From an uncultured Lachnospiraceae bacterium (GTDB lineage: Bacteria > Bacillota > Clostridia > Lachnospirales > Lachnospiraceae), in assembly GCA_947626915.1 (NCBI GenBank), contig CANQUA010000013.1, positions 1-52,222 of the forward strand: a stretch of 52,222 nt of DNA. The letters run 5' to 3'. Below the pieces are notes generated by a model, which was not told where the DNA came from, searched no databases, and saw only the letters and a list, made by a program, of their open reading frames with translations. Numbering within the stretch: position 1 is the stretch's first letter; each line of letters begins with the position of its first letter. Position numbers and translations under genes: made by a program. This document shows, piece after piece, positions 7,032-26,256 of this stretch.

Positions 7032-9572
7032 TTATTCGGTCATCAGCTTCTGGTAGGTGACATGCTGCTGCAGGGCGGCGGTCAGCCTGGCCATTTCGGA
7101 CAGATCGCCAAGCAGAATGACGCCGCACAGACGGTTGTTCAGGAAGAAATACTTCTTGTACTGGCCCTTGCCCATGTCGCGGAATTCCACGGTCTTGTAG
7201 AGCAGGTTCGGGTTCTTGCCGTTGTCCCCGGCGGCGAACAGCGCGGTATTCATGCCGTGGAATGTCAGGGCGGCGGACACCGGCGTATATTCCGTTTCTT
7301 CTCCGGCAGCGTTGGCACCGGCAATCTTTCCCTGTTCCGACGCTTCCGGCCAGATGCCCAGATTCAGTCCCTGGTATTCGGCGCAGTCTCCGCAGGCGTA
7401 GATGCCCGGAAGATTGGTCTCCATGCGGGCGTTGACCTGCACGGCGCGGCCGGTTGCCAGACCCATGGCGGATGCCAGGGTGATATTGGCGCGGATGCCG
7501 GTGGAAATGACCGCCATCTGCGCTTCAAAGAATTGTCCGTCGCCTAAGCGGACGCCGGAAACATGGCCGGATTCTTCGGTGATCTCCTGGATATTGGCTC
7601 CGGTCAGGATCCGGATGCCCTGTTTCGAGGCCAGCCCCTTCAGGATCTCAGCGGCGCTTTCGTCTAACTGGCGTCCCATCAGCACGGGGGCCGCTTCCAG
7701 TACGGTCACGTTCAGACCGGCTTTTTTCAGCTCCCACGCGGCTTCCAGGCCCAGCACGCCGCCGCCGATGACCACGGCGGACCGGGACTGCTTCATCAGC
7801 CCTTCGACCTTGTGTACGTCGTCGAGGCGGCGGATGGAAACCGCCTCCGGCAGTTTTGTTCCTTTGATGGGCGGAATGAAGCATTCGCTTCCCAGGGCGT
7901 AGATCAGGCGGGTGTAATGGATCTTCGCGCCGTCGTCGAGGATCACATTTTTCTCCGCGGTATCCACGGAAACGATCTTCCGGCCCAGGATCTGGTAGAT
8001 CTGGTTCGTTTCATACCAGCTTCCGTCTTCTATGGCGATCTGGTCCGCTTCCAGTCCGGCGACCAGGGCTTTGGTCAGCATCGGCCGGTTGTAAGCGGCG
8101 TACTGCTCGTTGGAGATCATGACCACGGTGCCGGTCTTGTCGCGTTCCCGGATGGCTTTGGCCGCATTGAAGCCGGCGGTCCCATTGCCCAGGATCACAT
8201 AATATTCTTTCGTGTTGTTGACGAAGCCGCTCTCCTCGACCTCCACGGGAACGAAGTTCTCCTTGCCTACGCCGCAGACCGGGCAGACCTCGATGGAGGA
8301 ATCGAAAATTTCTCCGCAGACCAGGCATTTCACCAGCTGGCGGGCGCCCTTTTTCTTCGGCAGGGTCACTTCTTTGTTCTGGACGCGGCAGCCGAACTGA
8401 TAGCCGAATTCATAGGCGGTGACCAGGTCGGCCTCGCTGGGTTTGAAGCGGATCTTCAGGCCGTCGGAGACCTTCATTTTCAGCTGCTTCAGGCGGTCGA
8501 TGATATTGGGCACGCCCTCGCCGCTCCAGCCGTAGCTGCCGAACGCGCTGGCGTATTTGCCGCCGTGAGTGCCGGGGAACATGGAGATCACCAGGTCCCA
8601 GATGGGCTGCAGGGCGTCGCCCACGATGGTGGGAGTGCCGAACAGCAGGCCGTCCGCGAAGAGCATGTCTTCGTTGACTTTGGCTTTGTCGGCGGTAACC
8701 ATATCGTAGATGCGCACATCCACGTCGCCGCTGTCCTTTACGCCCTCCGCGATCTTTTCTGCCAGCATCCCGGTGTAGCCGTAGGCGCTGACGTAGGGGA
8801 TCACGACGGTTTTCTTCGTATTCGGATTGACGACAGTGGACCATTCGCGGTAAGTTTTCATGACCTGGGCGATGCGGCCGCCGACCAGCACGGGGCCGTG
8901 GCCGGTGGCGATCATGGAAATGTCCATGCTTTCCACGCGGTTCAGGGCCTTGAGCATGAACGGTTTGAAGGGGCCGATGATGCAGTCATAGTAATAGCGG
9001 AGAGCGCTCTGGTAATCGTCCTCATTTTTGATCGCGGTGGAGACCACCTCCGGCAGGCAGTAATGGGAGCCGAACGAATCGCAGGTCACCAGGATCTGTT
9101 CCTCCTCGATAAAGGTATACATGGTGTCCGGCCAGTGGAGGTTGGGGACGACCATGAACCGCAGCGTGCGGCCGCCGATGGTCATTTTCTGATTGTCTTT
9201 GACGGCCAGGCTCACGAAATCGCGGTTGACGATCTCTTTCAGGAAACCGATGGCGGTGGCGGTGGCCAGGATCTTCATCTGGGGGCTGTAATCCAGCAGC
9301 TTTTCCACGCTGCCAGCGTGATCCGGCTCTGTATGGCTGACCACCAGGTAATCGATTTTCGTGACGTCGATGACTTCCTGGAGCTTGGACAGGTATTCAT
9401 CGAAGAATTTGGCTTTTGCGGTCTCAAACAGCACCGTTTTTCCCTCCGTTTTCAGAACGTAGGAATTGTAGGTGGTGCCGAATTCCGTATACATGATGAT
9501 GTCGAAGACCCGGAGCTGGTCGTCGATGATGCCGGTCCAGTAAAAATCTTCGCGTAATTGGATGGATTTCAT
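7032..9572 (-). CDS. Flavodiiron protein fused to rubredoxin and NADH:rubredoxin oxidoreductase (class F type)
   Basis: An 846-residue cytoplasmic enzyme expected to reduce O2 (or NO) to water (or N2O) with NADH in one polypeptide. Residues 1-250 are the metallo-beta-lactamase-like di-iron domain; the ligands are visible as H80-x-E82-x-D84-H85, H146, D165 and H225. Residues about 255-395 are the flavodoxin (FMN) domain. A short-spaced rubredoxin follows, with cysteines at 416, 419, 430 and 433, only ten residues between the pairs instead of about thirty. From 455 to the end lies a pyridine-nucleotide oxidoreductase with an FAD motif (LGNGTAGF), an NADH motif (VVIGGGVLGLEAA) and the YACGDCAE motif. 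This layout corresponds to the flavodiiron group described as class F in clostridia. Ribosome site GAAAGGAGAT precedes the ATG. It is probably oxygen or nitrosative stress defence in an anaerobe. Confidence 0.93.
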   Translation of the reverse strand: MKSIQLREDFYWTGIIDDQLRVFDIIMYTEFGTTYNSYVLKTEGKTVLFETAKAKFFDEYLSKLQEVIDVTKIDYLVVSHTEPDHAGSVEKLLDYSPQMKILATATAIGFLKEIVNRDFVSLAVKDNQKMTIGGRTLRFMVVPNLHWPDTMYTFIEEEQILVTCDSFGSHYCLPEVVSTAIKNEDDYQSALRYYYDCIIGPFKPFMLKALNRVESMDISMIATGHGPVLVGGRIAQVMKTYREWSTVVNPNTKKTVVIPYVSAYGYTGMLAEKIAEGVKDSGDVDVRIYDMVTADKAKVNEDMLFADGLLFGTPTIVGDALQPIWDLVISMFPGTHGGKYASAFGSYGWSGEGVPNIIDRLKQLKMKVSDGLKIRFKPSEADLVTAYEFGYQFGCRVQNKEVTLPKKKGARQLVKCLVCGEIFDSSIEVCPVCGVGKENFVPVEVEESGFVNNTKEYYVILGNGTAGFNAAKAIRERDKTGTVVMISNEQYAAYNRPMLTKALVAGLEADQIAIEDGSWYETNQIYQILGRKIVSVDTAEKNVILDDGAKIHYTRLIYALGSECFIPPIKGTKLPEAVSIRRLDDVHKVEGLMKQSRSAVVIGGGVLGLEAAWELKKAGLNVTVLEAAPVLMGRQLDESAAEILKGLASKQGIRILTGANIQEITEESGHVSGVRLGDGQFFEAQMAVISTGIRANITLASAMGLATGRAVQVNARMETNLPGIYACGDCAEYQGLNLGIWPEASEQGKIAGANAAGEETEYTPVSAALTFHGMNTALFAAGDNGKNPNLLYKTVEFRDMGKGQYKKYFFLNNRLCGVILLGDLSEMARLTAALQQHVTYQKLMTE

Positions 9573-13127: not shown

Positions 13128-13153
13128 AAAATGCGGTCATATGACCGCATTTT
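13128..13153. repeat. 26-base perfect palindrome between glycerate kinase and the toxin promoter
   Basis: Two 13-base arms meet at 13140/13141 (core atgcggtcat then atgaccgcat) with no spacer. It ends 3 bases before the -35 of the toxin-antitoxin promoter. It may be an operator for the antitoxin, whose HTH would favour a palindrome, or the terminator of the glycerate kinase transcript, since its right arm ends in TTTT. Confidence 0.7.
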
Positions 13154-13156
13154 CTA

Positions 13157-13184
13157 TTGACAAAAGGAAAAATCCGGCTATAAT
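13157..13184 (+). promoter_or_regulatory. Consensus promoter of the toxin-antitoxin pair
   Basis: TTGACA (13157-13162), a 16-base spacer and TATAAT (13179-13184), both perfect hexamers. The position shows that translation of the toxin cannot begin at the ATG at 13141, because that codon lies upstream of the -35. Confidence 0.85.
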
Positions 13185-13209
13185 AGAAAGTAAGATACGG
13201 GAGGTGAGG

Positions 13210-13554
13210 GTGATCGGACAAGCGGACAGCGCGGATATCCTGGCTTTTCTCGAGAGAGCGAAGGCTCTGGTATCCGCTGGAAGATACGATTTTGTACCGA
13301 GGAGAAAAAACATGCTGGCGCTGGCGCGGCGCGGACTTACGATCAGAGATGCAAAAGAGGAGATTCTGGGGCTTGTTGCCGATGATTATTATAAGGGACC
13401 GAAGAAGGATTTTGATTCTGACCGGCCGGGTGATATTTGGGAGTTTAAAAAGGAGATCGCCGGTATCCAGTTCTATGTAAAGATCAAGATTGCGCGGGAA
13501 AACGGAGAGGAGATTCTCAGGTGTATCGGATTTCATGAGGATGCTTTTACATAG
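13210..13554 (+). CDS. MqsR-family toxin (RNase-type), type II toxin-antitoxin system
   Basis: A 114-residue small protein read from GTG at 13210, 5 bases after the ribosome site gggagg (13199-13204). The frame is open back to an ATG at 13141 but that start lies before the promoter. The sequence resembles MqsR, an mRNA interferase of the RelE/ParE fold: an N-terminal helix segment (FLERAKALV), RRGLTIRDAKEEILGL, the DDYYKGP segment matching the SDFYKS region of E. coli MqsR, DIWEFKKE and a closing YVKIKIA strand. The downstream gene, 19 bases away, encodes the antitoxin, and the toxin-first order is typical of the mqsRA type. Family assignment is from motif resemblance; the catalytic residues were not individually verified. 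Confidence 0.75.
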   Translation: MIGQADSADILAFLERAKALVSAGRYDFVPRRKNMLALARRGLTIRDAKEEILGLVADDYYKGPKKDFDSDRPGDIWEFKKEIAGIQFYVKIKIARENGEEILRCIGFHEDAFT

Positions 13555-13573
13555 GATATAGGAGGTGGTGTCG

Positions 13574-14578
13574 ATGAGAAAATATTGCGAAGCATGTGGG
13601 AAAGAAGTTGAGACAAAGATCATTGCGAAGCGGGAGCGCTACGACGTATGCGGCGAAGAGATCGAGACGGACGCGCAGGTGCTGGTGTGCGCGGAGTGCG
13701 GCGAAGAGTTCTACTGCGAGGAACTGGATGAGGCGACGCTTCTGCGGGCGTATAATATTTACCGCCGCAGGCATAAGCTGCTGCTGCCGGAGGAGATCCG
13801 GCAGATCCGGGAACAGTATGGCCTGAGCCAGAGGAGCTTTTCGAAGCTGCTGAACTGGGGCGATAAAACGATCCGCCGTTATGAAAACGGTTCGATCCAG
13901 GACAAAGCTCACAACAGTCTGCTTTTGTTTCTGCGGGAACCGGAGAACATGCTGGTTTACCTGACGGAGAATGAGACGCCTCTGGAAGGGCGGCAGAGAC
14001 AGAGACTGATGGAGACAGTCGAAAAGCTCCGGCAGGACGGGGATTACCGCGCCGGAAGGAAGCTGGCCGGGCTTTTCTTCGCGCATCCGCCTTCCGTGGA
14101 AAACGGATTTAAGCTCTTTGATTATGAGAAGCTCTGCGCGATGGTCCTGTTTTTTGCCCACAGAAGCGCCGGGTTGCTGAAAACCAAACTGCTGAAGCTT
14201 TTGAATTACGCCGATATGATCTTCTATCAGGAGCACGGGGTCTCGATGTCCGGCCTGTGCTATGTGCATCTGCCGTATGGTCCTGTGCCGCAGGATTTTG
14301 ACCTGCTTTTCGGTATGCTCGCGTCGGACCATGTGGCGCATATCGAAGTGGTGTTTGAGGACGGTTATGAGCGGCACCAGGTCATACCGGAGCGCGGTCT
14401 GCCGGAGGACGTTTTGTCGCCGGAGGAGCGGGAGGTGCTGGAGCGGATCTGCGAAAGGTTCGCAGGCTTCGGTTCCGTGGAGATCTCGAATTATTCTCAC
14501 CAGGAAAAGGGCTACCGCGCGACGCGGCAGGGGGAGATTATACCTTATTCTTATGCGAAAGAGATTCGATTGTATTGA
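13574..14578 (+). CDS. MqsA-like zinc/HTH antitoxin with C-terminal Panacea (DUF4065/SocA) domain
   Basis: A 334-residue protein; ATG at 13574 has aggagg 8 bases upstream (13560-13565), better placed than the in-frame GTG codons before it. Residues 1-50 carry cysteines at 5, 8, 26, 39, 42 and 48, a zinc-binding module as in MqsA. Residues about 70-110 are an XRE-like helix-turn-helix (EIRQIREQYGLSQRSFSKLL, then KTIRRYENG). Residues about 165-320 resemble DUF4065, now called Panacea, including TKLLKLLNYADMIFY and YVHLPYGPVPQDFD, a domain known to neutralise many unrelated toxins. It presumably inhibits the upstream toxin and represses the promoter, with the palindrome at 13128-13153 as a candidate operator. 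E. coli MqsA has no Panacea domain, so the combination is notable. Confidence 0.8.
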   Translation: MRKYCEACGKEVETKIIAKRERYDVCGEEIETDAQVLVCAECGEEFYCEELDEATLLRAYNIYRRRHKLLLPEEIRQIREQYGLSQRSFSKLLNWGDKTIRRYENGSIQDKAHNSLLLFLREPENMLVYLTENETPLEGRQRQRLMETVEKLRQDGDYRAGRKLAGLFFAHPPSVENGFKLFDYEKLCAMVLFFAHRSAGLLKTKLLKLLNYADMIFYQEHGVSMSGLCYVHLPYGPVPQDFDLLFGMLASDHVAHIEVVFEDGYERHQVIPERGLPEDVLSPEEREVLERICERFAGFGSVEISNYSHQEKGYRATRQGEIIPYSYAKEIRLY

Positions 14579-14916: not shown

Positions 14917-14945
14917 TTTACCAGCGGAGGACAATGTGATATAAT
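14917..14945 (+). promoter_or_regulatory. Candidate promoter of the kinase-ABC-phosphatase operon
   Basis: TTTACC (14917-14922), a 17-base spacer and TATAAT (14940-14945). A second -35-like TTGACA at 14960-14965 has no good -10. The first lies 88 bases upstream of the kinase ATG. Confidence 0.5.
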
Positions 14946-15033: not shown

Positions 15034-18000
15034 ATGGATCAGGAATATTGTATTTATTGTATGAATCCCTCGTCAGAGGATACGTGCCCTCATTGCGGAA
15101 GAAAACGGAGCGAATATACGGCGGATCCGCACCATTTAGCGCCGGGGACCCTGCTGAGCGGCAAATATGAAGTCGGCGCTGTGTTGGGAGAGGGCGGCTT
15201 TGGCATCACTTACATAGGCAGGGACCGGAATCTGGAGCTTCGGATCGCCATCAAGGAGTATTTCCCCTCCGGCATGGTGAATCGTAATAATACCGCTTCG
15301 GCGGAGATCACGGCGAGCGTAGGGAAGGCGCAGGAGTTTTTCGAAAAAGGGAAAACCAGTTTCCTGGAAGAGGCCAGGACGCTGGCAAAGTTTTCAAACC
15401 ATCCGAATATCGTGTCGGTCCGTGATTTTTTTGCTGAGAATAATACGGCGTATATCGTGATGGAATATCTGGAGGGCACGAACCTGAAGGATTATCTGGC
15501 GCAGAGAGGCCCCATGTCTTTTGAGCAGGCCTTTGAACTGCTCTCGCCTGTGATGAGCGCGCTGGCAAAAGTACATGAGCGGGGACTGATCCATCGGGAT
15601 ATCAGTCCGGCGAATATTATGGTGCTGGAGGACGGGACCGTAAAGCTGTTGGATTTCGGGGCGGCCCGCGATGTCAGCGGCGCGGATGAGAAAAGCCTTT
15701 CCGTGATGCTGAAGCCGGGCTACGCGCCGGAAGAGCAGTACAGGAGCAAAGGGAATCAGGGTCCGTGGACGGATGTGTACGCGTTGTCCGCGACGCTTTA
15801 CAAGATGGTGACGGGGATTACGCCCGAGGACGCCATGAACCGGATCTATCAGGATGAGCTGGCCCGGCCGTCTTCCGTCAACGGTGATATTACGGAAGAG
15901 CAGGAGAGAGTGATCCTGAAAGGGATGGCGGTTTACCAGGAGGATCGTTTTCAGTCGGTAGCGGAACTGCAGAGCGCCTGCCGGACCGGCATTCCATATG
16001 AGGAGGACAGCCCGGCTCCTGTGTTTGACGACGAAGCGACCGTTACGGAAGAACAGTATCTGGCGCGCCGGAAAGAGAGCAGGGAAGCTTCGCCGGAAGA
16101 GGAGCGGCGGGAGAAAGAGACGCCGGACCGCCGCACGAAGTCCCAGGCGGTTATTCAGGAAAAACTGACATCCAGTCAGGGAAACGGTCAGGAAAAACAG
16201 CCATCCGACCATGGAAACCGGAAATCCGGTCAGGAAGCCCGTCAGGAGAAACAGCCATCCGGCCGTGAAAAACGGATGTCTGCTCAGGAAAAGCCGGCAG
16301 CCGCGCAGGAGAAAAAGCCGAATCGAATCTGCTTTTTGCTTTCCCTTGCGGCCGGTATCGTATTTTTTGCGTGTCTGGCGACTTTTGCGGCTTCCGCGGC
16401 CAGCGAAGCGGAAACCGGAGTGCTGGTGGAGCTGGGGATATTCTGTGTGATGAGCGCGGCCGCTGCGGTTGGACTGGGATATTTTTATTATCCGCGTCTT
16501 CATAACAGTGAGCGGAAACCCAACCGCCTCTGTCTGGCCGGAAGTATCCTGGTATCGGTGCTGACCATGATATGGGTGTGGTTCGTCTATCAGATGTACG
16601 TATCCAATTCTTACAAAGAAGGAACGCTGGAGGGCTCGATCATACTGATCCTGGCGCTGATGGCGCTGGCGCTTCTCTTCGGATATTTTTATTATCCGCG
16701 TCTGGAACGGAAAAAACGGGAGAAAGCGGTGTGGATCCACGGCGGCGTATTGGGAGGCTGCCTGGCGATTTTTGTTGCGTATGTTGTGATTTTCAGTCTT
16801 AGCCACATTACGATCGGGGATACCCGCGTCAGCAGGGGAGAAACGAGACTGTCCCTTATGGCGGACATTATCAACAATCATGATATTGAGAAGCTGAGGG
16901 ATCTGAAAAAACTTGAGCGGCTTTCGATCGTTGGATGTTTTATGGACGATGAGGACGTAAGGGTCATCGGAGAGCTGACCTGGCTGAAAGAGCTTTCTCT
17001 GGAAAACAATATGGATATTACCGATGTATCGCCGCTGAGCCAGCTGAAGAACCTTACGAGCCTGAACCTGTCGCTGACGGGCACAGAAGATATTTCCTGT
17101 CTGAAAGATCTGACCGCTCTGCAGGAGTTAAGAATCAGCGGGACGAACGTTTCGGATGTAAGCGTTCTGAGCTCCTATACCGAACTTAAAACGCTGTATA
17201 TGTCCCAGCTGTCGAAGCTGGACAGGGAAACGATCTCGCTGCCGGCGTCGGTACAGAATCTTTACTGTTCGGGGGATGGTTTGGAAACGCTTGATTTTAC
17301 GGCGAGTGTGGATAACCTGCTGATGCTGGAGGCCGATGGAAACGATTTATCGGACATTTCTCCCCTGAGGAAGTTTGAAAATCTCAGCAGAGTGAATCTT
17401 TCAAACAACCGCATCGAAGATATTTCGCCTGCTTGCGGGAAGAACCTGTCGGAACTGAAATTCAACAATAACCGGGTCAGCGATATTTCCGCGTTTGCCG
17501 GGCTCAGACTTTCCAGGCTGGAGGGGGCCGGCAATCAGATCGCGGACATATCGGCGCTGGCGGATAATTCGCAGCTCCGTTTCGTAGTTCTGAACCATAA
17601 TCAGATCAAGGATATATCGGCGTTAAAGGACTGCTTCCACATTTATTCCCTGGATTTGTCTTATAATGCCATCGAGGATATTTCGGCGCTGGCGACGGTA
17701 GACGATCTGGAGACCGTGAATCTGAGGTCGAATAAGATCCGGGACATTTCCCCGCTGGGGCAGGCTAAGAAACTGCCGGATTCTTCGTCGCTTCTGGATC
17801 TGCGTGACAATGAGATCGAGAGCGTGGAGGCGCTGGCGAAGTTTACAAAGGTCAGCGATATGTATCTGAGCGATAATCGGATTCAGGATGTTTCTCCGCT
17901 GGCTTCCTGCGCGTCGCTGGTCTATCTGAGACTGAACCGCAACCAGGTCAGCGACATTTCTCCGCTGGCGGCTCTGAAGCAGCTGAATATGCTGGAGATT

Positions 18001-18237
18001 GTGGGGAATCCGGTCACGGATCTGTCGACGCTCGCGCTGAATCCGTCGAGCAATCTGTTTGCCAGCAAGGGTATTTTGCGGATCAGCTATAACGACGCCA
18101 TCGACTGGCAGAGCCTGAGATCGATTGAAAATCTGAATGTGATTATCTATGACGTTACAGACCGGCAGAAAGCGAACCTGCAGGAGATTGGCTTCAATAC
18201 GTTTGCAGTGTCGGATGGTTTGGATGCGCAGAATTAA
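15034..18237 (+). CDS. Membrane Ser/Thr protein kinase with zinc ribbon and extracytoplasmic leucine-rich repeats
   Basis: A 1067-residue receptor-like kinase. The ATG at 15034 follows aaggag (15022-15027); an upstream in-frame GTG at 14980 lacks a site. A zinc ribbon (C6, C9, C18, C21) leads into a Hanks-type kinase: glycine loop LGEGGFG (51-57), K74, HRD at 187-189 (HRDISPANIM), DFG at 207-209 and a GYAPEEQY activation segment. A charged Gln/Glu/Lys-rich linker runs to about 425. Five hydrophobic segments follow (about 432-456, 463-487, 497-523, 533-556, 568-594). The loops after the second and fourth are strongly basic (LHNSERKPNR, LERKKREK), so the C-terminus should be outside. Residues about 620-1050 are SDS22/internalin-type LRRs (L..L.L..N.I.DISPL). 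It is first of a four-gene operon with an FHA-ABC ATPase, permease and PP2C, and probably senses an external ligand. Confidence 0.92.
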   Translation: MDQEYCIYCMNPSSEDTCPHCGRKRSEYTADPHHLAPGTLLSGKYEVGAVLGEGGFGITYIGRDRNLELRIAIKEYFPSGMVNRNNTASAEITASVGKAQEFFEKGKTSFLEEARTLAKFSNHPNIVSVRDFFAENNTAYIVMEYLEGTNLKDYLAQRGPMSFEQAFELLSPVMSALAKVHERGLIHRDISPANIMVLEDGTVKLLDFGAARDVSGADEKSLSVMLKPGYAPEEQYRSKGNQGPWTDVYALSATLYKMVTGITPEDAMNRIYQDELARPSSVNGDITEEQERVILKGMAVYQEDRFQSVAELQSACRTGIPYEEDSPAPVFDDEATVTEEQYLARRKESREASPEEERREKETPDRRTKSQAVIQEKLTSSQGNGQEKQPSDHGNRKSGQEARQEKQPSGREKRMSAQEKPAAAQEKKPNRICFLLSLAAGIVFFACLATFAASAASEAETGVLVELGIFCVMSAAAAVGLGYFYYPRLHNSERKPNRLCLAGSILVSVLTMIWVWFVYQMYVSNSYKEGTLEGSIILILALMALALLFGYFYYPRLERKKREKAVWIHGGVLGGCLAIFVAYVVIFSLSHITIGDTRVSRGETRLSLMADIINNHDIEKLRDLKKLERLSIVGCFMDDEDVRVIGELTWLKELSLENNMDITDVSPLSQLKNLTSLNLSLTGTEDISCLKDLTALQELRISGTNVSDVSVLSSYTELKTLYMSQLSKLDRETISLPASVQNLYCSGDGLETLDFTASVDNLLMLEADGNDLSDISPLRKFENLSRVNLSNNRIEDISPACGKNLSELKFNNNRVSDISAFAGLRLSRLEGAGNQIADISALADNSQLRFVVLNHNQIKDISALKDCFHIYSLDLSYNAIEDISALATVDDLETVNLRSNKIRDISPLGQAKKLPDSSSLLDLRDNEIESVEALAKFTKVSDMYLSDNRIQDVSPLASCASLVYLRLNRNQVSDISPLAALKQLNMLEIVGNPVTDLSTLALNPSSNLFASKGILRISYNDAIDWQSLRSIENLNVIIYDVTDRQKANLQEIGFNTFAVSDGLDAQN

Positions 18238-18261
18238 CGCGGCGCGGAAAGGGAGAAAAAG

Positions 18262-19806
18262 ATGGCAGATACGATCCTATACAAAGCGTTTCCGTCCCGG
18301 GAGGCGACGCTGCATTTATTCGATGAAACAGGCCTGATCCAGTCGATTCCGCTGAGAGGCCGGATGCTGGTCGGCAGAAATTCTTCCGGTCATGTGTGCG
18401 ATATTGCCTTGAATCCGCAGTATATTTCGAGACGGCACGGAGAGATTGATCAGTCTGAGGATCAGTATTTTTATACGGATCTGCTCAGTATGAACGGGAC
18501 CGGCATAAACGGGAAGATATTGTGCAGCCGCACGGAATATCTGCGCGAGGAGCTGCATAACGGGGATGTGATTACGTTCGGTGTGCAGTATATGAAAGGC
18601 AAGCCGCAGAACCGGGTCATCGGATTGTTCACGCAGACGGAAACGCCGATTTGCTGGCAGAGTCTTCCGCTGACGGAGGATATTGCGGAGCTGCAGATCG
18701 GCAGGGCGGTTTCGGAGGGGATCGAGATGAAAGATGCGGCGGTCTCTGAAAAGCACGCGTCCTTTTTCCGCTCCAGCGGCGGCTGGGCGATCATTGACCA
18801 TAACAGCACCAACGGAGTCAGTCTGAACGGGAAAAAGGTATTGTACCCGCAGTATCTGTCGCCGTTCGATGTGGTTCGGATCGCGGACGCGTATTTTGTG
18901 TTTTTCGGCGACTGGCTGATTTATTCCGCGGGACGCAGGGTAGAGGGGCCGGATGAAGCGGATTCCGGGCGGCCGGTGCGCGGCAAGCAGCTTTGCATCC
19001 ATATTGTTCAGCGCAGCGTATTCCAGCGTTTCAAAAAGATGATGCTTCTGCAGGACATCGACGTGACGGTCAGCGACGGAGAAATGGTCCTGATCCTCGG
19101 CGGGTCCGGCGCGGGCAAGACGACCTTTGTAAACGCCGTGATGGGATATGAGAAAGCGAAGGGCAAAATCACCTACGGCGACACGGATATTTATGAAGAG
19201 TATGAGAGGATGAAGTATGAGATCGGTTTCGTGCCGCAGCAGGATCTTCTGCGGGGCAGCGACACCGTGTATGATACGCTGGCCAACGCGGCGGAGATGA
19301 AGCTTCCCAGGGGAATGTCCGGAGAAAAGCGCGAGGATCGGATCCGGGAGGTGCTGGAAGACCTTGGACTGACGCCGGAGAAGGATTCGCTGGTATCCAA
19401 ACTGAGCGGCGGGCAGAGGAAGAGACTGAGCATCGCCGTGGAATATATTTCCGATCCGAGCCTGTTTTTTCTGGATGAGCCGGATTCCGGACTGGACGAT
19501 ATCATAGGAGAGGGCCTGATGGAGAATCTGCGCGGCATCGCGGACAAGGGAAAGATCGTGATGATCATTACGCACAGTCCGGAACGCGCCCGCAAATTCC
19601 TGGACAAGGTGATCGTACTGGCGAAAAGCACCGAGGACAACTGCGGACATCTGGCATTTTTCGGGAGCGTGCAGGAAGCGTTCGATTTCTTTGAGACGGA
19701 CACGTTCCGCGGGATCATAAAAAGGATCAACCGGAAAGATGAGAACGGAGAGGGCCTGGCGGATTATTATATTGAGAAATATAATGCGGGGAACAGGAGG
19801 AAATAG
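18262..19806 (+). CDS. Double-FHA domain ABC transporter ATPase
   Basis: A 514-residue cytoplasmic protein, 24 bases after the kinase gene. Two forkhead-associated domains bind phosphothreonine peptides: FHA1 at about 30-110 (VGRN, ISRRHGEI, SMNGTGING) and FHA2 at about 140-215 (IGRA, VSEKHASF, NSTNGVSLNG), both keeping the Arg, Ser/His and Asn signature residues. The ABC domain follows from about 245: Walker A GGSGAGKTT (about 280-288), signature LSGGQRKRLSIAVE (about 381), Walker B LFFLDEPDSGLD (about 402) and the H-loop THSPERA (about 436). It resembles the ABCG/White-type ATPases. The order FHA-FHA-ABC is the same as in mycobacterial Rv1747, where a Ser/Thr kinase controls the transporter, but here the membrane part is a separate gene. 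ATG follows aaagggagaa. Confidence 0.93.
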   Translation: MADTILYKAFPSREATLHLFDETGLIQSIPLRGRMLVGRNSSGHVCDIALNPQYISRRHGEIDQSEDQYFYTDLLSMNGTGINGKILCSRTEYLREELHNGDVITFGVQYMKGKPQNRVIGLFTQTETPICWQSLPLTEDIAELQIGRAVSEGIEMKDAAVSEKHASFFRSSGGWAIIDHNSTNGVSLNGKKVLYPQYLSPFDVVRIADAYFVFFGDWLIYSAGRRVEGPDEADSGRPVRGKQLCIHIVQRSVFQRFKKMMLLQDIDVTVSDGEMVLILGGSGAGKTTFVNAVMGYEKAKGKITYGDTDIYEEYERMKYEIGFVPQQDLLRGSDTVYDTLANAAEMKLPRGMSGEKREDRIREVLEDLGLTPEKDSLVSKLSGGQRKRLSIAVEYISDPSLFFLDEPDSGLDDIIGEGLMENLRGIADKGKIVMIITHSPERARKFLDKVIVLAKSTEDNCGHLAFFGSVQEAFDFFETDTFRGIIKRINRKDENGEGLADYYIEKYNAGNRRK

Positions 19807-19810
19807 AGCG

Positions 19811-20692
19811 ATGGGAGAATCTCGTTTGGGACGGATGGGACAGATCCGGGTATACACGGGGAAATGCTTCCGTATCTTTTTTCATGAAAAAGGCTGGAAA
19901 TCCCTGGTCAGTACGCTTCTGATCTCCGTGATTTTGGCGTGGGTCATCGGCGATAATACGTTTATTGTCAATGAGAGCACCAAAACCGGGATTTTCGCGA
20001 TGGTCTGCGGGGCCGTGTGGACGGGGCTGTTCAATTCGATCCAGTCGGTCTGCCGGGAGAGGGCGATCATTAAGCGGGAGCACAGGACGGGACTGCATAT
20101 ATCCTCGTACATCATTGCCCATATGCTCTATGAGTTTGTCCTCTGTGTGGCGGAAGCGGTCATCTTTACAGTAGTTTTCGGAATCATCCGGAGTTTCCCG
20201 AGCCACGGCGTGCTCTTTGAATGGATCGGGATCGAGTTCTTTGTCGCATTTACGCTGACCATATTCTGCTCGGATGCGCTGGGACTGATGGTATCGTGTA
20301 TCGTGAAAACGGAGAACGCCGCCATGACGGTGATGCCGTTTGTGCTGATCATTCAGCTGGTCATGTCCGGCGTGATGTTTACGCTTCCCGAGGACGCGGA
20401 GTTTGTCAAGGAACTGACCATCAGCAAATGGAGTCTGTCCGCGTTCTGCAGCTCCGCGGATCTGAATGAGCTCCCAACGAAGGATACGCTGGAGAAATTC
20501 AAGGAAGCTATGCTGTCGGACACGAGTATCCACAGCTGGAAGGACCTGAATCTGACCCAGACCTATGATATGGAGTATGATGCTTCCGTGCAGCATGTGG
20601 TGTTGACCTGGCTGGTGCTGATCGCATACAGCGCGGTCTATGGATTCATAGGGATCCTGTTTTTGAAGCTGGTGGATCTGGACAAGCGGTAG
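19811..20692 (+). CDS. ABC-2-type transporter permease, partner of the FHA-ATPase
   Basis: A 293-residue membrane protein. ATG at 19811 has aggagg 10 bases upstream; it starts 4 bases after the stop of the ATPase gene, so translation is probably coupled. Six hydrophobic segments can be seen, including LVSTLLISVILAWVIGD, IFAMVCGAVWTGLFNSI, HMLYEFVLCVAEAVIFTVVF, FFVAFTLTIFCSDALGLMV, MTVMPFVLIIQLVMSGVMF and TWLVLIAYSAVYGFIGILF. This is the ABC-2/ABCG membrane-domain layout with a larger external loop between segments five and six. It should form a dimer with two ATPase subunits and export an unknown lipid, glycolipid or peptide. Phosphorylation by the upstream kinase and binding by the FHA domains are the likely control. 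Confidence 0.88.
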   Translation: MGESRLGRMGQIRVYTGKCFRIFFHEKGWKSLVSTLLISVILAWVIGDNTFIVNESTKTGIFAMVCGAVWTGLFNSIQSVCRERAIIKREHRTGLHISSYIIAHMLYEFVLCVAEAVIFTVVFGIIRSFPSHGVLFEWIGIEFFVAFTLTIFCSDALGLMVSCIVKTENAAMTVMPFVLIIQLVMSGVMFTLPEDAEFVKELTISKWSLSAFCSSADLNELPTKDTLEKFKEAMLSDTSIHSWKDLNLTQTYDMEYDASVQHVVLTWLVLIAYSAVYGFIGILFLKLVDLDKR

Positions 20693-20731
20693 CCGTTTTA
20701 CGGAATAGGCTCGGAAAATGTGGGGATTCCA

Positions 20732-21460
20732 ATGATTCAATATGCGTATATAACCGATAAAGGCGGCCGCGCCGTGAATGAGGACGCAGTCGCGGCCGTG
20801 ACGCGGGACGGCGCTTGTGGTTTTATCGTATGCGACGGTCTCGGCGGCCACGGCAGCGGGGATCTGGCGTCCGCGAGGACGGCGGAGAGGTTCCGGGATA
20901 TTTTTGCGCGGGTAGGTTCTCCGGACGGGTCTTTCCTGAAGCTCTTTTTTACGGAGGCGCAGGAGGGGCTGCTGTCGGATCAGGCCAGAATGAAGGCCGC
21001 GAACCGGATGAGGACGACGGCGGCCGCGCTGGTGATCGAGGGAGGAACGGTCTGGATCGGCCACATCGGGGATTCCCGCGTATACGGGTTCGCGGACGGA
21101 GCGGTCGTCCTGCAGACGCGCGATCACAGTGTGCCGGAAGCGCTTTTTCGGGCAGGCCGGATCCGGGAAGAAGAGATCCGCTTTCACCCGGACAGAAATA
21201 AACTGCTGAACGTTCTGGGCGCGCAGAAAGAACGATTCCGCTTTTCGGCGGCGGGACCGATGGATCTGCGGCGGTTTCAGGCCTTTTTGCTCTGTTCGGA
21301 CGGTTTTTGGGAATATGTGGATGAGGCGGCCATGTGCCGCTGCCTGCACGGAGCGAAAAGCGCGCAGGATTGGCTGGACAGCATGGTGTCGGAGCTGGTC
21401 CGCGCGGGCAGAAGTCACGAGATGGACAATTATTCGGCGGTCGCGGTCTGGAACCGGTAG
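20732..21460 (+). CDS. PP2C-family Ser/Thr protein phosphatase
   Basis: A 242-residue soluble phosphatase that would reverse phosphorylation by the kinase three genes upstream. The PPM motifs are present in order: a start with TDKGGRAVNEDAV, the metal-binding FIVCDGLGGHGSGD, the IGDSRVYGFADGAV strand with TRDHS, and the C-terminal LLCSDGFWEYVD followed by DNYSAVAVW. The metal-binding aspartates in these motifs are retained, so it is probably active. There are no membrane segments. The chosen ATG at 20732 is preceded by a purine run (gggga); an in-frame GTG at 20720 is an alternative adding four residues. It ends the operon, 39 bases after the permease, and faces the phosphate-sensor kinase gene tail to tail. 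Confidence 0.92.
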   Translation: MIQYAYITDKGGRAVNEDAVAAVTRDGACGFIVCDGLGGHGSGDLASARTAERFRDIFARVGSPDGSFLKLFFTEAQEGLLSDQARMKAANRMRTTAAALVIEGGTVWIGHIGDSRVYGFADGAVVLQTRDHSVPEALFRAGRIREEEIRFHPDRNKLLNVLGAQKERFRFSAAGPMDLRRFQAFLLCSDGFWEYVDEAAMCRCLHGAKSAQDWLDSMVSELVRAGRSHEMDNYSAVAVWNR

Positions 21461-21617: not shown

Positions 21618-23285
21618 TCAGGCGTCCCCGGAATCAGGGAAAACCACAGTAATAGCCGTCCCCTCGCCCTCCGCACTGTGCAGTTCGATTTTCGCATGGT
21701 GCAGCCTTGCGGCGTGTTTAACGATAGACAGTCCCAGCCCCGTGCCGCCCAGTTCTTTGGAACGGCTCTTGTCCACCCGGTAAAAACGCTCGAAAATGCG
21801 CTCCTGGTGTTCCGGCAGGATACCGATCCCCGTATCGGCTACGCAAAGGCGGACGGTCCCCGCGCAGCGGTTCACCGATACCGTTACCGTGCCGCCGGGC
21901 CGGTTATATTTGACCGCGTTATCCGCCAGATTGTATACGATGCTCTCGAGAAGCTGCGGCACGCCGTCCAGCACAGCGTGTTCTCCATCGACGCTTATGG
22001 AAACCTCGGCGGTTTCCGCTTCGCCAGAGAGCGAACGGACCGTCTCGGCCGCCACCGCGTAGAGATCGACGTTTTCCCGCTTCAGATCGCCCGCGCCCTC
22101 GTCCAGATGGGAGAGCCGGATGATATCTTCCACCAGCCGGATCATGCGCTGGGCCTCTCCCTGGATCCGGGTATAGAACCCCATGCGGTCCTCTTCCCTG
22201 ACGATGCCGTTGGACAAAAGCTCCGCCGATCCGGCGATGATCTGCAGGGGCGTTTTCAGTTCGTGGGAAACGTTCGCCGTAAATTCCCGCCGCATCTGTT
22301 CCGCCTGCGCTTTTTCCGTCACGTCGAGCGCGAGAAGCACCGCGCCGGTTACCGCGCCGTCCTCGGATACGGGGCTTAGATCCAGCTGATAGTTCCTGCC
22401 TTTTAATTCGACGTTTCTTTCCGCCCGGACGCCCGTTTCCATCGCGGAGAGGAGATCGGATATCTCCATGCTCCGGTTGACGGACAGCATATGCCGTCCG
22501 ATGCAGTCCCGGCCTGTATCGAACAATTCCGCCGCCGCGCGATTGATCTCCAGGATGATCCCCTTGGTATTCAGGGCAATGATCCCCTCCGTCATATTTT
22601 CCGTGACGGTCTCAAATTCCTCTTGCTTTTTCCGCAGTTTCTCCGTTTGGATCCGAATCTGCCGCTGCTGGGCGTCGATCCGGCGCAAAAGCGGCGAAAG
22701 TTCGTCGTAACCCTCGTTGTTCAGGGGGTCGTCCAGATTCAGACGGTTCAGCGGCTCGGTGATATGCCTGGAAAGCCGGTATGCCAGAAAGAGCGACAGA
22801 CCGACCGCGATCACAATAATCACGGCGATGGGCTGCGCCATTCCGAGCAGCAGCGTCAGCAGCGTATTCTGGGCGACGGAGAGGCGCACGACGGTTCCGT
22901 CCGACAGACGCCGGGCGCTGTAGAGGGTGCGTTCCATCAGGGTCACCGAATAGCGCGAACTTTCCCCGTATCCGGTCGATAAGGCTTCTTTCATTTCCTC
23001 GCGCTCCAGATGGTTCTCCATTTCCGAGGCCTGCGCTTCGCTGTCGAAAAGCACCGCGCCGTCCGCGCCGATCCACGTGACGCGGTATCCCCGGGCGTCC
23101 AGCCCATCGAAATACGCCGCGCCCGCACATTCAGCGCCCTGCGCGGCCAGCTCCGTCTGCGTCCTTAATTGGTTCCGCTGAACATTTCCGAAGTAATTAT
23201 AAAGGATTCCGAGAAACAGCGCCGCGGAAGCGAGGAAAACCGCGATCGTCACAAGGCAGATCGATTGGAAGATTCGTTTGGTCAT
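21618..23285 (-). CDS. phoR: Phosphate-sensor histidine kinase (PhoR type)
   Basis: A 555-residue membrane histidine kinase, last gene of the phosphate operon. The start used is the ATG at 23285, 7 bases after GGAGG and overlapping the regulator stop (ATGA). Two transmembrane segments (about 9-31 and 146-168) enclose an external sensor region; then comes a HAMP-like helix and a PAS domain (about 222-325, MTEGIIALNTKGIILEINRA). The HisKA motif is ANVSHELKTPLQ with the phosphorylated H341, followed by the ATPase N box LADNAVKYN, the G1 box DTGIGI and the G2 box GGTGLGLSI. TM-PAS-HisKA-HATPase next to pst genes is the standard PhoR layout. It should phosphorylate the regulator encoded just upstream when phosphate is scarce, with PhoU and the Pst transporter relaying the signal. 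Confidence 0.9.
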   Translation of the reverse strand: MTKRIFQSICLVTIAVFLASAALFLGILYNYFGNVQRNQLRTQTELAAQGAECAGAAYFDGLDARGYRVTWIGADGAVLFDSEAQASEMENHLEREEMKEALSTGYGESSRYSVTLMERTLYSARRLSDGTVVRLSVAQNTLLTLLLGMAQPIAVIIVIAVGLSLFLAYRLSRHITEPLNRLNLDDPLNNEGYDELSPLLRRIDAQQRQIRIQTEKLRKKQEEFETVTENMTEGIIALNTKGIILEINRAAAELFDTGRDCIGRHMLSVNRSMEISDLLSAMETGVRAERNVELKGRNYQLDLSPVSEDGAVTGAVLLALDVTEKAQAEQMRREFTANVSHELKTPLQIIAGSAELLSNGIVREEDRMGFYTRIQGEAQRMIRLVEDIIRLSHLDEGAGDLKRENVDLYAVAAETVRSLSGEAETAEVSISVDGEHAVLDGVPQLLESIVYNLADNAVKYNRPGGTVTVSVNRCAGTVRLCVADTGIGILPEHQERIFERFYRVDKSRSKELGGTGLGLSIVKHAARLHHAKIELHSAEGEGTAITVVFPDSGDA

Positions 23286-23950
23286 CGGTCGGCCTCCAAT
23301 CGGTAACCGACGCCGCGGACGGTTTTGATATGTTCGCCGCACCGGCCCAGTTTGGTGCGCAGCGTGCCGACGTGGACGTCCACGGTGCGCGTCTCGCTCG
23401 CGTAATCGTCCCCCCAGACGCTGAGCCGGAGCTGGTCCCGCGTGAACGCTTTTCCGGGGCTTTCCATGAATTTGCGGAGCAGTTCGTATTCCTTAAAGGT
23501 AAGTTCCACGCGCTTCCCGCCGGAGAGTACGATATGCTGCGCCGTGTCCATCTGGATCCCGCCGAGCGAGAGAACTTCGCGCTCCCCGGCCGGACGCGCG
23601 CGCCGCAAAAGCGCCTTTACCCGCGATACCAGCTCCATCATGCCGAAAGGCTTGGCCAGATAATCGTCGGCCCCGAGATCGAGGCCGATCACTTTGTCAT
23701 ATTCGGAGCCTTTGGCCGTCGCCATGATGACCGGCACCGTGTTTCCGCCTGCCCGCAGCCGTTTCAGGATATGGATGCCATCCTCTCCGGGCAGCATGAT
23801 GTCCAGAAGAACCAGTTCGGGATCGTGCTCGGAGAGGGCCTCATAAAAGGACTCGCCGTCCGGAAAGCCTTTTGCCTCAAATCCCGCGGAATTTAAGGTA
23901 TATATCATCAGATCGCGGATACCGCTGTCGTCCTCTACGCAGAAGATCAT
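23282..23950 (-). CDS. OmpR-family phosphate response regulator (PhoB/PhoP type)
   Basis: A 222-residue two-domain regulator. The receiver domain has the acidic pocket E6-D7-D8, phosphoacceptor D50 (LLDIMLPGEDG), the conserved Thr/Ala region (MATAKGSE) and the lysine of LAKPFG. The C-terminal winged helix (VELTFKEYELLRKF, TRTVDVHVGTLRTKLG, VRGVGYRL) binds direct repeats. ATG at 23950 is 8 bases after AAGGAAG; an in-frame GTG three codons upstream overlaps that site and is less likely. The gene sits between phoU and the sensor kinase gene, with a four-base overlap into the latter. Its likely binding site is the TTTACA direct repeat at 28027-28043. In clostridia both phoB and phoP names are used, so no symbol is given. 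Confidence 0.92.
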   Translation of the reverse strand: MIFCVEDDSGIRDLMIYTLNSAGFEAKGFPDGESFYEALSEHDPELVLLDIMLPGEDGIHILKRLRAGGNTVPVIMATAKGSEYDKVIGLDLGADDYLAKPFGMMELVSRVKALLRRARPAGEREVLSLGGIQMDTAQHIVLSGGKRVELTFKEYELLRKFMESPGKAFTRDQLRLSVWGDDYASETRTVDVHVGTLRTKLGRCGEHIKTVRGVGYRLEADR

Positions 23951-23998
23951 GGGAAACACTTCCTTTCAGAACCTATTATAGCATGGTCCGCGGTTTTT

Positions 23999-24658
23999 TC
24001 AATCGGCCCCCTGGGGCGAGTTTTTCTCCCCGGTAACGGAAAACAGCACCCATTCGGCAATGTTTACGGCGTGATCGCCGATGCGCTCGAAATATTTGGC
24101 GACCATCAAAAGGTCGAGGGCGTATTCTCCATCGGTGGGGGATTGCGCGATCAGGGAGATCAGGCTGTTTTTGATCGTCATAAAATAATCGTCCACGATA
24201 TCGTCGGAAGCGATGACCGCTTCGGCGGTGGAAGTATCCTGCTTCACATAGGCGTCCACGCTGTCCGTGACCATTTTGCTGGCCGCTTTTGCCATCTCCC
24301 GGATCCCGATATGCTCCGGGAGCGTTCTGCCGTTCAGAAAAGGCAGGATTTCCGCGATGTCCTCCGCCTGGTCTCCGATCCGCTCCATATCCGTGATCAT
24401 TTTCAAGGCGGCGGATATCTGCCGCAGGTCCCGCGCCACCGGCTGCTGCTGCAGGAAAAGCCGCAGGCAGATGGATTCGATCTGCCGTTCCTTTTCGTCG
24501 ATCTCGTGATCGAGCGGAGCGATCTTCGCCGCTAATGCGTCGTCCTTTTGGATCAGCGCGGAAGCCGCGAGGGAAATCACTTCTTCGCACAGCGCCCCCA
24601 TCCGGATCAGCTCCTGTCCCAGCGTGTTAAGCTGCTCGTCAAACCGTTTCCTCATCAT
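23999..24658 (-). CDS. phoU: Phosphate transport system regulator PhoU
   Basis: A 219-residue all-helical protein of the usual PhoU length, made of two similar three-helix halves. The family is seen from the opening [17 protein letters not shown], the metal-binding-type segments [12 protein letters not shown] and [15 protein letters not shown] in the first half, and the matching [18 protein letters not shown] near the C-terminus. PhoU links the Pst transporter to the sensor kinase and keeps the Pho response off when phosphate is plentiful. ATG overlaps the pstB stop (ATGA) and is preceded by GGGGAGG at 5 bases, so the two are translationally coupled. Confidence 0.95.
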
Positions 24659-25413
24659 CCAAACCTCCCCGTGATATAGTCCTCGGTCCGCCTGTCCTCC
24701 GGCTGGGAGAACATTTTCTCCGTATCCCCGTATTCGATCAGTTCCCCTAAAAGGAAAAACGCCGTCCGGTCCGAGATCCGCACCGCCTGCTGCATATTGT
24801 GCGTGACGATGACGATCGTATACTCCTTTTTGAGCTCCGTCGCCAGGTCTTCAATCTTTGAGGTAGAGATCGGGTCCAGGGCCGAGGTGGACTCGTCCAT
24901 CAGGAGAACGTCCGGCCTGACCGCCAGGGCGCGGGCGATGCAGAGGCGCTGCTGCTGGCCGCCGGAGAGGCCCAGCGCGTTCTTTTTCAGCCGGTCTTTT
25001 ACTTCCTCCCAAATCGCGGCGTCCCGCAGGGAATGTTCCACGATGTCGTCGAGTTTCGCTTTCGCGCGGATCCCGTGGGTGCGGGGACCGTAGGCTACGT
25101 TGTCGTAGATCGACATCGGAAATGGGTTCGGCTTCTGGAATACCATGCCGATGTTTTTGCGCAGAGCCGTCACATCGCGTCCGGGCGCGTAGATCTCTTC
25201 CCCGCGGTAGGTCAGCGAACCGGTCACTTTCACGCCCTCGATCAGATCGTTCATGCGGTTGATCGTCCGCAGAAATGTGGATTTCCCGCAGCCGGACGGC
25301 CCGATGAGCGCCGTGATATGATGTTCGGGGATGTCGAGACAGATGTTTTTCAGCGCGTGTGTTTCACCGTAATAAAAGTCCAGGTTTTTGGCAGAAATGA
25401 TCGTATCGGTCAT
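24655..25413 (-). CDS. pstB: Phosphate ABC transporter ATP-binding protein PstB
   Basis: A 252-residue ATPase of the high-affinity phosphate importer. Clear PstB signs are the start ([17 protein letters not shown]), Walker [10 protein letters not shown], the Pst-specific Q-loop region [21 protein letters not shown], the signature [16 protein letters not shown], Walker [16 protein letters not shown] and the H-loop VTHNMQQA. Length is typical. GGAAGGAG inside the end of pstA is its ribosome site. It works with PstC and PstA in the membrane and PstS outside. Confidence 0.97.
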
Positions 25414-25416
25414 AGG

Positions 25417-26256
25417 TCAGCTCCTTCCTAATTTTTTGCCCAGGAAACCAGCGGAAAAATTGACGGCCACCGTGAGGATCAGCAGGATGGACGCGATGGA
25501 AAAGGCAGTCGAAAAATCCGCGTTTTCTTTGGCGTAATGGTAGAGCGCGACGGTGAGCGTAGCGCCTGACGCTTTTGCCAGCCGGTCCGGGGAGAAACTC
25601 TGCATCGCCATGCTCATACCGGCGGTATACATGAGCACCGCGCTTTCTCCTGTCACCCGGCCGGCGGCAAGAATACATCCCGTGACGATGCCGTCGATGG
25701 AGGATGGCAGCACGACCGTGCGGATCATGTGCCATTTCCCGCTTCCCAGGCCCAGCGCACCCTCCCGGTAAGACATCGGCACCGTTTTCAGACTCTCCTG
25801 CGTCGACCTCATGATGGTGGGCAGGATCATGACCGCCAGCGTCAGGGAACCGGCCAGCAGCGTTTTCTGCAGTTTTAACGCCGTGCAGAATACAATGACG
25901 CCGACGAGGGCGTAAATGATGGACGGGATTCCGGCCAGCGTTTCCGACGCGAACTCGATCGCCGTCACGAACCGTTTGTTTCGGGCGTATTCCGTCAGGT
26001 AGATGGCCGCGCCCACTCCCAGCGGAAGCGCGGCGGTCAGGGAAACAATGATCACAAAAAGCGTGTTTTTGATCGCCGGCAGGATGCCCACCGTACCGTG
26101 GATGACGCTTTCGGCGGTGGACAAAAAACGCCAGCTGATGCCGCCGGTCCCCCGGAGAAGGATGTACCCGATGAGAAACAAAAGCAGGCAGGCGGTGACC
26201 GCCGCACATCCGTACAAGAGGGTCCAGCCCGCGATCGCGTAAAGTTTTCGTCTCAT
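25417..26256 (-). CDS. pstA: Phosphate ABC transporter permease PstA
   Basis: A 279-residue inner-membrane permease with six hydrophobic segments. It starts MRRKLYAIAGWTLLYG and shows the PstA-type segment LPLGVGAAIYLTEYA, ASETLAGIPSIIYALVG and the coupling-helix region EGALGLGSGKWHMIRTVVLP that contacts the ATPase. The ATG is one base after the pstC stop, with AGAGGA as ribosome site. It forms the phosphate channel with PstC. Confidence 0.95.
   Translation of the reverse strand: MRRKLYAIAGWTLLYGCAAVTACLLLFLIGYILLRGTGGISWRFLSTAESVIHGTVGILPAIKNTLFVIIVSLTAALPLGVGAAIYLTEYARNKRFVTAIEFASETLAGIPSIIYALVGVIVFCTALKLQKTLLAGSLTLAVMILPTIMRSTQESLKTVPMSYREGALGLGSGKWHMIRTVVLPSSIDGIVTGCILAAGRVTGESAVLMYTAGMSMAMQSFSPDRLAKASGATLTVALYHYAKENADFSTAFSIASILLILTVAVNFSAGFLGKKLGRS

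What the first reader, a model, noticed from the sequence alone, without database searches (positions are those of the whole stretch)
15034..21460. Receptor-kinase/FHA-ABC/PP2C operon: a probable phospho-regulated export system
Seen: kinase, double-FHA ABC ATPase, ABC-2 permease and PP2C phosphatase are consecutive, same strand, with gaps of 24, 4 and 39 bases. Known: FHA domains bind phosphothreonine; in mycobacteria the FHA-FHA-ABC transporter Rv1747 is controlled by a Ser/Thr kinase. Inferred: this is a split form in which an external signal controls export through kinase, FHA reader and phosphatase eraser. The coupling of an LRR receptor kinase to an FHA-ABC exporter is, to my knowledge, not a described system; the transported substance is unknown.
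Basis: partly seen in the sequence, partly recalled or inferred. Interest (0 to 1): 0.85.

Follow-up and report, generated by a model that had tools for sequence, protein, structure and literature searches.

The report
Receptor-kinase switch on an exporter
A bacterium, probably from an animal gut, carries four neighbouring genes that look like a complete outside-to-inside switch (a surface sensor kinase, a phosphate-reading export pump and an erasing enzyme), and some relatives keep the same set, which suggests that an outside signal controls an export pump.

Summary
Four same-strand genes encode a kinase with five membrane helices and an LRR ectodomain (15034-18237), an FHA-FHA-ABCG-type ATPase (18262-19806), its ABC-2 permease (19811-20692) and a PP2C phosphatase (20732-21460), with gaps of 24, 4 and 39 bases. 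Catalytic and phosphothreonine-pocket motifs are intact. LRR-kinase, FHA-ABC and permease stand in this order in six genomes, this one included; four of the six also have the PP2C (the other two contigs end within 0.2 and 0.9 kb). Across 62 related ABC loci, a kinase gene accompanies an intact FHA pocket in 28 of 37 and its loss or absence in 4 of 25; PP2C in 16 of 37 and 0 of 25. This is suggestive only, since the tree leaves too few independent changes. New here: a conserved N-terminal threonine in the FHA-ABC (motif in 10 of 10 near loci) and a [DE]xT[VIM] motif in the kinase linker (5 of 7), concrete candidate switch sites. Best reading: a split, receptor-driven version of the mycobacterial PknF-Rv1747 kind of phospho-regulated exporter. 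Signal, cargo and sign of regulation are unknown.

The parts
14917..14945 (+). promoter-like site (TTTACC-17-TATAAT, TG before -10)
   Evidence: consensus match only
15034..18237 (+). receptor Ser/Thr kinase, 1067 aa (alternative GTG start 14980): N-terminal Cys-rich zinc-ribbon-like stretch (by eye), kinase domain, linker, five membrane helices, LRR ectodomain
15166..15993 (+). kinase domain (about residues 45-320), HRD and DFG intact
16039..16041 (+). Thr336 codon in the linker motif DDEATVTEEQY; [DE]xT[VIM] in 5 of 7 linkers of this LRR group (not L046, L082)
16324..16794 (+). five membrane helices (residues 431-587); an odd number puts the LRR part outside
   Evidence: hydropathy; model
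16843..18183 (+). LRR ectodomain (about residues 604-1050), internalin-type solenoid
   Evidence: Pfam; model (ten-residue pLDDT blocks mostly 76-94); Foldseek
18262..19806 (+). FHA-FHA-ABC ATPase, 514 aa
18271..18273 (+). Thr4 codon (MADTILY), candidate phosphosite; the only invariant residue between Met1 and Gly38 in six aligned proteins
18367..18582 (+). FHA domain 1, pocket G38 R39 S56 H59 N78 intact
18697..18882 (+). FHA domain 2, pocket G147 R148 S162 H165 N184 intact; solved relatives include the Rv1747 FHA (6cah, E=3.8e-4)
19009..19701 (+). ABCG-type nucleotide-binding domain
19811..20692 (+). ABC-2 (ABCG-type) permease, 293 aa
20732..21460 (+). PP2C Ser/Thr phosphatase, 242 aa (alternative GTG start 20720)

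Best explanation
This is a dedicated phosphorylation switch on an exporter. The LRR ectodomain senses something outside the cell, the cytoplasmic kinase is turned on, and it phosphorylates threonines: most likely Thr4 at the free N-terminus of the FHA-ABC ATPase and/or Thr336 in its own juxtamembrane linker. One or both FHA domains of the ATPase then bind the phosphothreonine, in the same protein, in a neighbouring copy or in the kinase, which changes or clusters the ABCG-type transporter (ATPase plus permease) and so changes export. The PP2C resets the system. Shown here: domains, intact motifs, gene order and its conservation, conserved threonines. Inferred: phosphorylation, binding, direction of the effect. 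Unknown: signal and cargo.
For: Complete set of writer, reader, effector and eraser with intact motifs. LRR-kinase, FHA-ABC, permease in this order and strand in window, L080, L117, L079, L046, L081; PP2C follows directly in window, L080 and L117 and after three further genes in L079. The six LRR-kinases group together among 43 kinase domains taken from chosen loci (support 91, not starred), so receptor and pump appear to travel as a pair. Intact FHA pocket with same-strand kinase within 8 kb 28 of 37, otherwise 4 of 25, Fisher p=5.6e-6 without correction for kinship; PP2C within 8 kb 16 of 37 against 0 of 25. The 15 close relatives whose FHA part is replaced by 2 to 4 hydrophobic segments have a kinase in 0 of 15. 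For scale, this genome's 10 kinase hits would give about 0.06 per stretch of 17.5 kb. Thr4 is invariant in A2, and a T-[VILMS]-[LIFV] motif opens 10 of 10 intact members of the near clade. [quoted passage not shown] GarA carries its regulatory threonines N-terminal to its FHA domain (passages of PMC12321487).
Against: On the ABC tree there are only 6 changes of the FHA trait and 4 well-supported independent pairs, and the paired test is not significant. 9 of 37 loci with an intact pocket have no kinase within 8 kb (L082 and L148 are contig ends; L129 and L144 end 1.6 and 2.6 kb away on one side), and L119 has a degenerate FHA part but a kinase 866 bases away. L081 shows no PP2C in the 0.9 kb left of its contig. 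The activation loop of the kinase holds serines and no threonine, while FHA domains prefer phosphothreonine. The linker motif is missing in 2 of 7 (L046, L082). The motif patterns were written after looking at the sequences, and their odds treat related sequences as independent. The module is patchy: 3 of 26 genomes of the genus have this ABC subfamily, one of them (G221) in the fused form. I have no data on phosphorylation or transport for these proteins.
Confidence: 0.62

Rival explanations
1. Scaffold reading: the FHA domains bind phosphorylated sites of other proteins (other kinases or their clients in this genome), so the transporter is recruited into a larger phospho-network and the adjacent kinase is only one of several writers.
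For: The genome has 10 kinase hits and 4 FHA domain hits, two of them in this protein; related clusters hold several kinases, PP2Cs, FHA proteins and vWA proteins together. Rv1747 FHA-1 binds the stress protein Rv2623 (abstract and passages of PMC5549992).
Against: The window operon has one kinase only, and the LRR-kinases at these loci form one group beside the FHA-ABC in 6 of 6 cases.
Confidence: 0.22
2. Sensory reading: the ABC unit works as a sensor or mechanical transmitter that informs the kinase (as Bce-type transporters inform histidine kinases), rather than as an exporter whose rate is regulated.
For: ABCG-type permease without a known cargo; kinase with a five-helix membrane part that could contact the permease.
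Against: The FHA domains sit on the ATPase, and the PknF-Rv1747 precedent runs from kinase to transporter. Kinases with a single membrane helix (L046, L081) serve the same kind of pump. The Bce comparison is recalled.
Confidence: 0.1
3. The four genes are neighbours without a functional bond; kinase and transporter act apart.
For: Patchy distribution; co-transcription not shown; tree-aware test not significant.
Against: Conserved order across genera and gaps of a few bases; raw association.
Confidence: 0.06

Closest known systems
PknF-Rv1747 of Mycobacterium tuberculosis
   Same: Two FHA domains in front of an ABCG-type ATPase, adjacent kinase gene, exporter-type permease; FHA2 finds the Rv1747 FHA structure 6cah
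   [quoted passage not shown] passages)
Fused FHA-FHA-ABC-permease transporters of Clostridia found here
   Same: Same reader and ABC parts, often a kinase beside them (with TPR in L060, PDZ in L067, FHA in L056) and in some a PP2C
   Different: ATPase and permease fused, other sensor domains, another part of the ABC tree
GarA/OdhI intramolecular FHA switch
   Same: Regulatory threonine N-terminal to an FHA domain (passages of PMC12321487)
   Different: Motif is DTILY, not ETTS; output is a transporter; phosphorylation not shown
Plant LRR receptor kinases with KAPP
   Same: LRR receptor kinase, FHA domain and PP2C in one circuit; KAPP interacts with several receptor kinases (passages of PMC2553837); its FHA structure 1mzk is a weak sequence match (E=0.008)
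   Different: KAPP joins FHA and PP2C in one protein (recalled); here the FHA is on a pump. Likeness of logic, no claim of descent
PFNA operon of bifidobacteria
   Same: Receptor-like Ser/Thr kinase operon of gut bacteria (abstract and passages of PMC8430577)
   Different: Partners are FN3, MoxR-type ATPase, DUF58 and transglutaminase, not an FHA-ABC

Membership tests
Rv1747-type FHA-ABC transporter with cognate kinase | two FHA domains N-terminal to an ABCG-type NBD, pockets intact | tested here: met
Rv1747-type FHA-ABC transporter with cognate kinase | NBD and membrane domain in one polypeptide | tested here: not met
   separate ORFs 18262-19806 and 19811-20692
Rv1747-type FHA-ABC transporter with cognate kinase | Ser/Thr kinase gene directly beside it | tested here: met
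   24-base gap
Rv1747-type FHA-ABC transporter with cognate kinase | threonine phosphorylation by that kinase and FHA-dependent contact | not testable with these tools
   only candidate sites
[quoted passage not shown]
   Thr4 invariant in A2, motif in 10 of 10 near loci with an intact pocket
GarA/OdhI-type N-terminal FHA switch | ETTS motif | tested here: not met
   sequence reads MADTILY
PASTA kinase (PrkC/PknB/Stk1) | extracellular PASTA domains | tested here: not met
   no PASTA in Pfam; NF033483 203.6 bits against a cut-off of 450
PFNA operon | fn3, MoxR-type ATPase, duf58 and transglutaminase beside the kinase | tested here: not met
   the three genes after the kinase are FHA-ABC, permease and PP2C

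The most novel reading that the evidence does not exclude
A bacterial LRR receptor kinase that directly gates a membrane exporter through an FHA reader and a built-in N-terminal phosphothreonine switch, one output of a modular Clostridia toolkit in which sensors (LRR, PASTA, RCC1, TPR, Sel1, PDZ) and FHA-tagged outputs (exporter, trypsin-like protease, PrsW protease) are exchanged around a common kinase, FHA and PP2C core; logically parallel to plant LRR receptor kinase with FHA-PP2C.
Probability: 0.4. Interest if true: 0.78.

Novelty: new variant of a known kind. Interest (0 to 1): 0.6.

Why it matters
The best-known case of transport control by Ser/Thr phosphorylation and FHA domains that I know of is mycobacterial, where the cargo is only proposed. 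Here an outside sensor, writer, reader, pump and eraser lie in one four-gene unit with named candidate threonines, so the whole circuit could be rebuilt and tested in a laboratory strain. The related loci also point to a varied kinase and FHA signalling layer in Clostridia.

Tried and rejected
Chance neighbourhood: held unlikely because the order recurs in other genera. Distant kin as mere ABC hits: one search lists a hit in 200 of 200 genomes because any ABC ATPase matches; I therefore used a profile at E<=1e-60. Cargo from neighbours: nine neighbour ORFs of five relatives without an intact FHA (L045, L047, L049, L053, L055) gave PLD, HD-GNAT, SDF symporter, mechanosensitive channel, SH3, cation efflux, clostripain, GGDEF and ABC1 families, no common theme, so no cargo was inferred. 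Phylogeny-aware proof of the FHA-kinase association: tried, too few independent changes. Kinases missed by my profile: Pfam on 9 chosen ORFs near seven kinase-less loci with an intact pocket (L063, L064, L129, L135, L143, L144, L146) found none (its tenth protein was a neighbour of L045). Rows dropped before the tree: L134 (taken as a duplicate of L078 from identical layout and contig length) and L058 (broken frame, contig end), leaving 62 of 64 loci. The models of the FHA-ABC (mean pLDDT 74) and of the kinase (63.7) are too weak for contacts between parts. Rfam at gathering threshold found nothing in the window.

Literature: no paper on an LRR-kinase with an FHA-ABC was among those listed by searches (two returned none; one listed 20 of 24 and 60 listed 15 of 16). 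The library holds open-licence papers only, so this is no proof of novelty. Papers were seen as listings or as passages found by term; none was read whole.

Full report
What is there. The window (52,222 bases, contig 13 of a 3.18 Mb genome) holds four same-strand genes: 15034-18237, 18262-19806, 19811-20692 and 20732-21460. Pfam confirms kinase plus LRR, FHA-FHA-ABC, ABC-2 membrane and PP2C. The catalytic motifs looked for are intact, and so are both phosphothreonine pockets. The ATPase and permease match the white/ABCG group (TIGR00955, best NCBIfam hit of both, far under its cut-off). By sequence the solved relatives of the ATPase are ABCA and ABCG proteins; by fold human ABCG5/8 and plant ABCG proteins lead, with other ATPases close behind. 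Solved relatives of the FHA part include the FHA of Rv1747 (6cah, E=3.8e-4) and, weakly, that of plant kinase-associated protein phosphatase (1mzk, E=0.008).

Topology. Hydropathy and the model agree on five membrane helices between residues 431 and 587. With the kinase inside, an odd number puts the LRR part (about 604-1050) outside. The LRR part is modelled well (ten-residue blocks mostly 76-94) and matches internalin and Roco LRR structures; the kinase part matches PknB. L080, L079 and L117 also show five such segments, L046, L081 and L082 one, which is odd too.

Conservation. Profile searches at E<=1e-60 found this ABC subfamily in 41 of 397 genomes of the family, 17 of 391 of the class (draws overlap; own genome counted in each) and 3 of 26 of the genus, one of these in the fused form. 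A scan of named genomes gave 9 loci, of which L078-L082 are clear kin: two water-deer Clostridia, an uncultured Lachnospiraceae from isolate Lapin-015, one labelled Erysipelotrichaceae and one Clostridiales. I annotated 64 loci with local profiles. LRR-kinase, FHA-ABC and permease stand in one order and strand in six genomes: window, L080, L117, L079, L046 and L081. L117 and L046 are other genera of the same family. L082 shows the LRR part only, its ORF starting at base 27 of its contig. PP2C follows directly in window, L080 and L117 and after three further genes in L079; L046 ends 0.2 kb and L081 0.9 kb past the permease without one. L080 is 83% identical in the FHA-ABC and has neighbours of the same sizes as the window's phosphate genes, so it is a near relative, not distant evidence. 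In other members the receptor is exchanged: L078 has a PASTA kinase and a second kinase with two PP2Cs and an FHA protein, L043 a kinase, a vWA protein, a second kinase, a PP2C and a weak PP2C-like protein.

A natural comparison. Some close ABC relatives (40-47% identical to the window protein) have lost the FHA pocket, or carry hydrophobic segments in its place. With 'intact' defined as G-R-S-H-N complete in at least one FHA domain, a same-strand kinase lies within 8 kb in 28 of 37 intact loci and in 4 of 25 others (Fisher p=5.6e-6). The four are L119, L066 (a near-intact pocket), L044 (a kinase-like gene 3.7 kb away) and L133 (N-terminus cut by the contig end). PP2C: 16 of 37 against 0 of 25. 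Other distance limits give the same trend (p from 3e-4 to 5e-7, with or without four contig-end loci). In the 15-row group with 2 to 4 hydrophobic segments before the NBD none has a kinase. But these counts share ancestry: the tree holds 6 changes of the FHA trait and 4 well-supported independent pairs, and the paired test is not significant. Seven kinase-less intact loci are not explained by the contig ends I excluded (L063, L064, L129, L135, L143, L144, L146); Pfam on chosen neighbours found no kinase.

Candidate switch sites. In six aligned FHA-ABC proteins Thr4 is the only invariant residue between Met1 and the first pocket glycine at 38. A T-[VILMS]-[LIFV] motif lies within the first 20 residues in 10 of 10 intact members of the near clade; shuffling each N-terminus gives it in 3-19% per sequence. 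The pattern was written after looking, and related sequences are not independent. Degenerate L044 and L045 lack it, L118 has TAK, and L119 keeps a T-F-I-Y, which weakens the contrast. The otherwise variable linker of the LRR proteins carries [DE]xT[VIM] in 5 of 7 (window Thr336; not L046 or L082), against 3-19% per shuffled linker, with the same reserve. A like motif recurs before the FHA domain of other FHA proteins of these loci: a related pattern matched 9 of 28 such ORFs, for example EPTVF, DATVL and EKTVF. This fits a phospho-docking motif shared by kinase and readers; that it is phosphorylated is inference.

Mechanism. Outside signal to LRR; kinase on; threonine phosphorylated at the FHA-ABC N-terminus and/or kinase linker; FHA domains bind it; pump activity or clustering changes; PP2C resets. 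The PknF-Rv1747 pair gives the precedent for most inner steps: threonine phosphorylation, need for both FHA domains, positive modulation and, for the cytoplasmic part, condensates that PstP reverses (passages of PMC3908365 and of the review PMC9312465). GarA gives the precedent for a threonine switch N-terminal to an FHA domain (passages of PMC12321487). The sign of the effect here is open.

Place among known things. It works like PknF-Rv1747, but the one-polypeptide feature of Rv1747 was tested and not met, so I call it a split, receptor-driven variant. A kinase with LRRs was noted in a bacterium in 2005 (a Pseudomonas protein; passages of PMC1262709), as was clustering of FHA, kinase and phosphatase genes in M. 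tuberculosis. A 2020 study describes kinases fused to zinc ribbons or membrane helices next to PP2C and vWA genes in other systems (passages of PMC7159879). So the parts are known; the combination of an LRR receptor kinase with an FHA-gated exporter was not among the papers listed by my searches, within the limits of an open-licence library. The six LRR-kinases group together (support 91), while LRR-bearing kinases elsewhere in the genus (L113, L114) belong to another kinase group, which argues that this receptor-pump pair is a unit of its own.

Noticed in passing
13141-14578: MqsR-like small protein (E=5.9e-5, under the Pfam cut-off) followed by an MqsA-type HTH protein with a SocA/Panacea domain: a probable toxin-antitoxin pair just upstream of the operon.
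   Followed up: no
7032-9572: 846-aa fusion of flavo-diiron, flavodoxin, rubredoxin-like and NADH-rubredoxin-reductase-like domains, which would make an NADH to O2/NO reductase in one chain (domains; function recalled).
   Followed up: no
21618-26256: Histidine kinase, response regulator, PhoU-like protein and phosphate ABC genes lie convergent to the operon (identified by eye from the ORF sequences; no family search run on them); L080 has ORFs of the same sizes there.
   Followed up: partly
342-4811: 1489-aa surface protein with Cna_B repeats.
   Followed up: no
L047, L048, L049, L051, L053 and ten kin: 15 close relatives of the ABC ATPase carry 2 to 4 hydrophobic segments in place of the FHA pair, several with a KCxxKxWxxxVPxxRxYK-like motif, and no kinase within 8 kb.
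   Followed up: partly
L110:7127-17000: Cluster with a related kinase, a PrsW-type protease with FHA, an FHA protein, two PP2Cs, a trypsin-like protease with FHA and a weakly matched vWA protein: other FHA-tagged outputs of the same toolkit.
   Followed up: partly
L108:5904-13434: Kinase of the same family with RCC1 repeats as C-terminal part, a second kinase, then an SPFH/Band-7 protein.
   Followed up: no
L043:1054-1992 and L064:12263-13966: Zinc-ribbon proteins with a NADase_transloc (F5/8 type C-like) domain near two FHA-ABC loci, in L064 also with vWA.
   Followed up: no
L069:11592-15772 and L073:1689-6370: In the same genome two further kinases have a separate LRR protein next door, as if receptor and kinase were split.
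   Followed up: no
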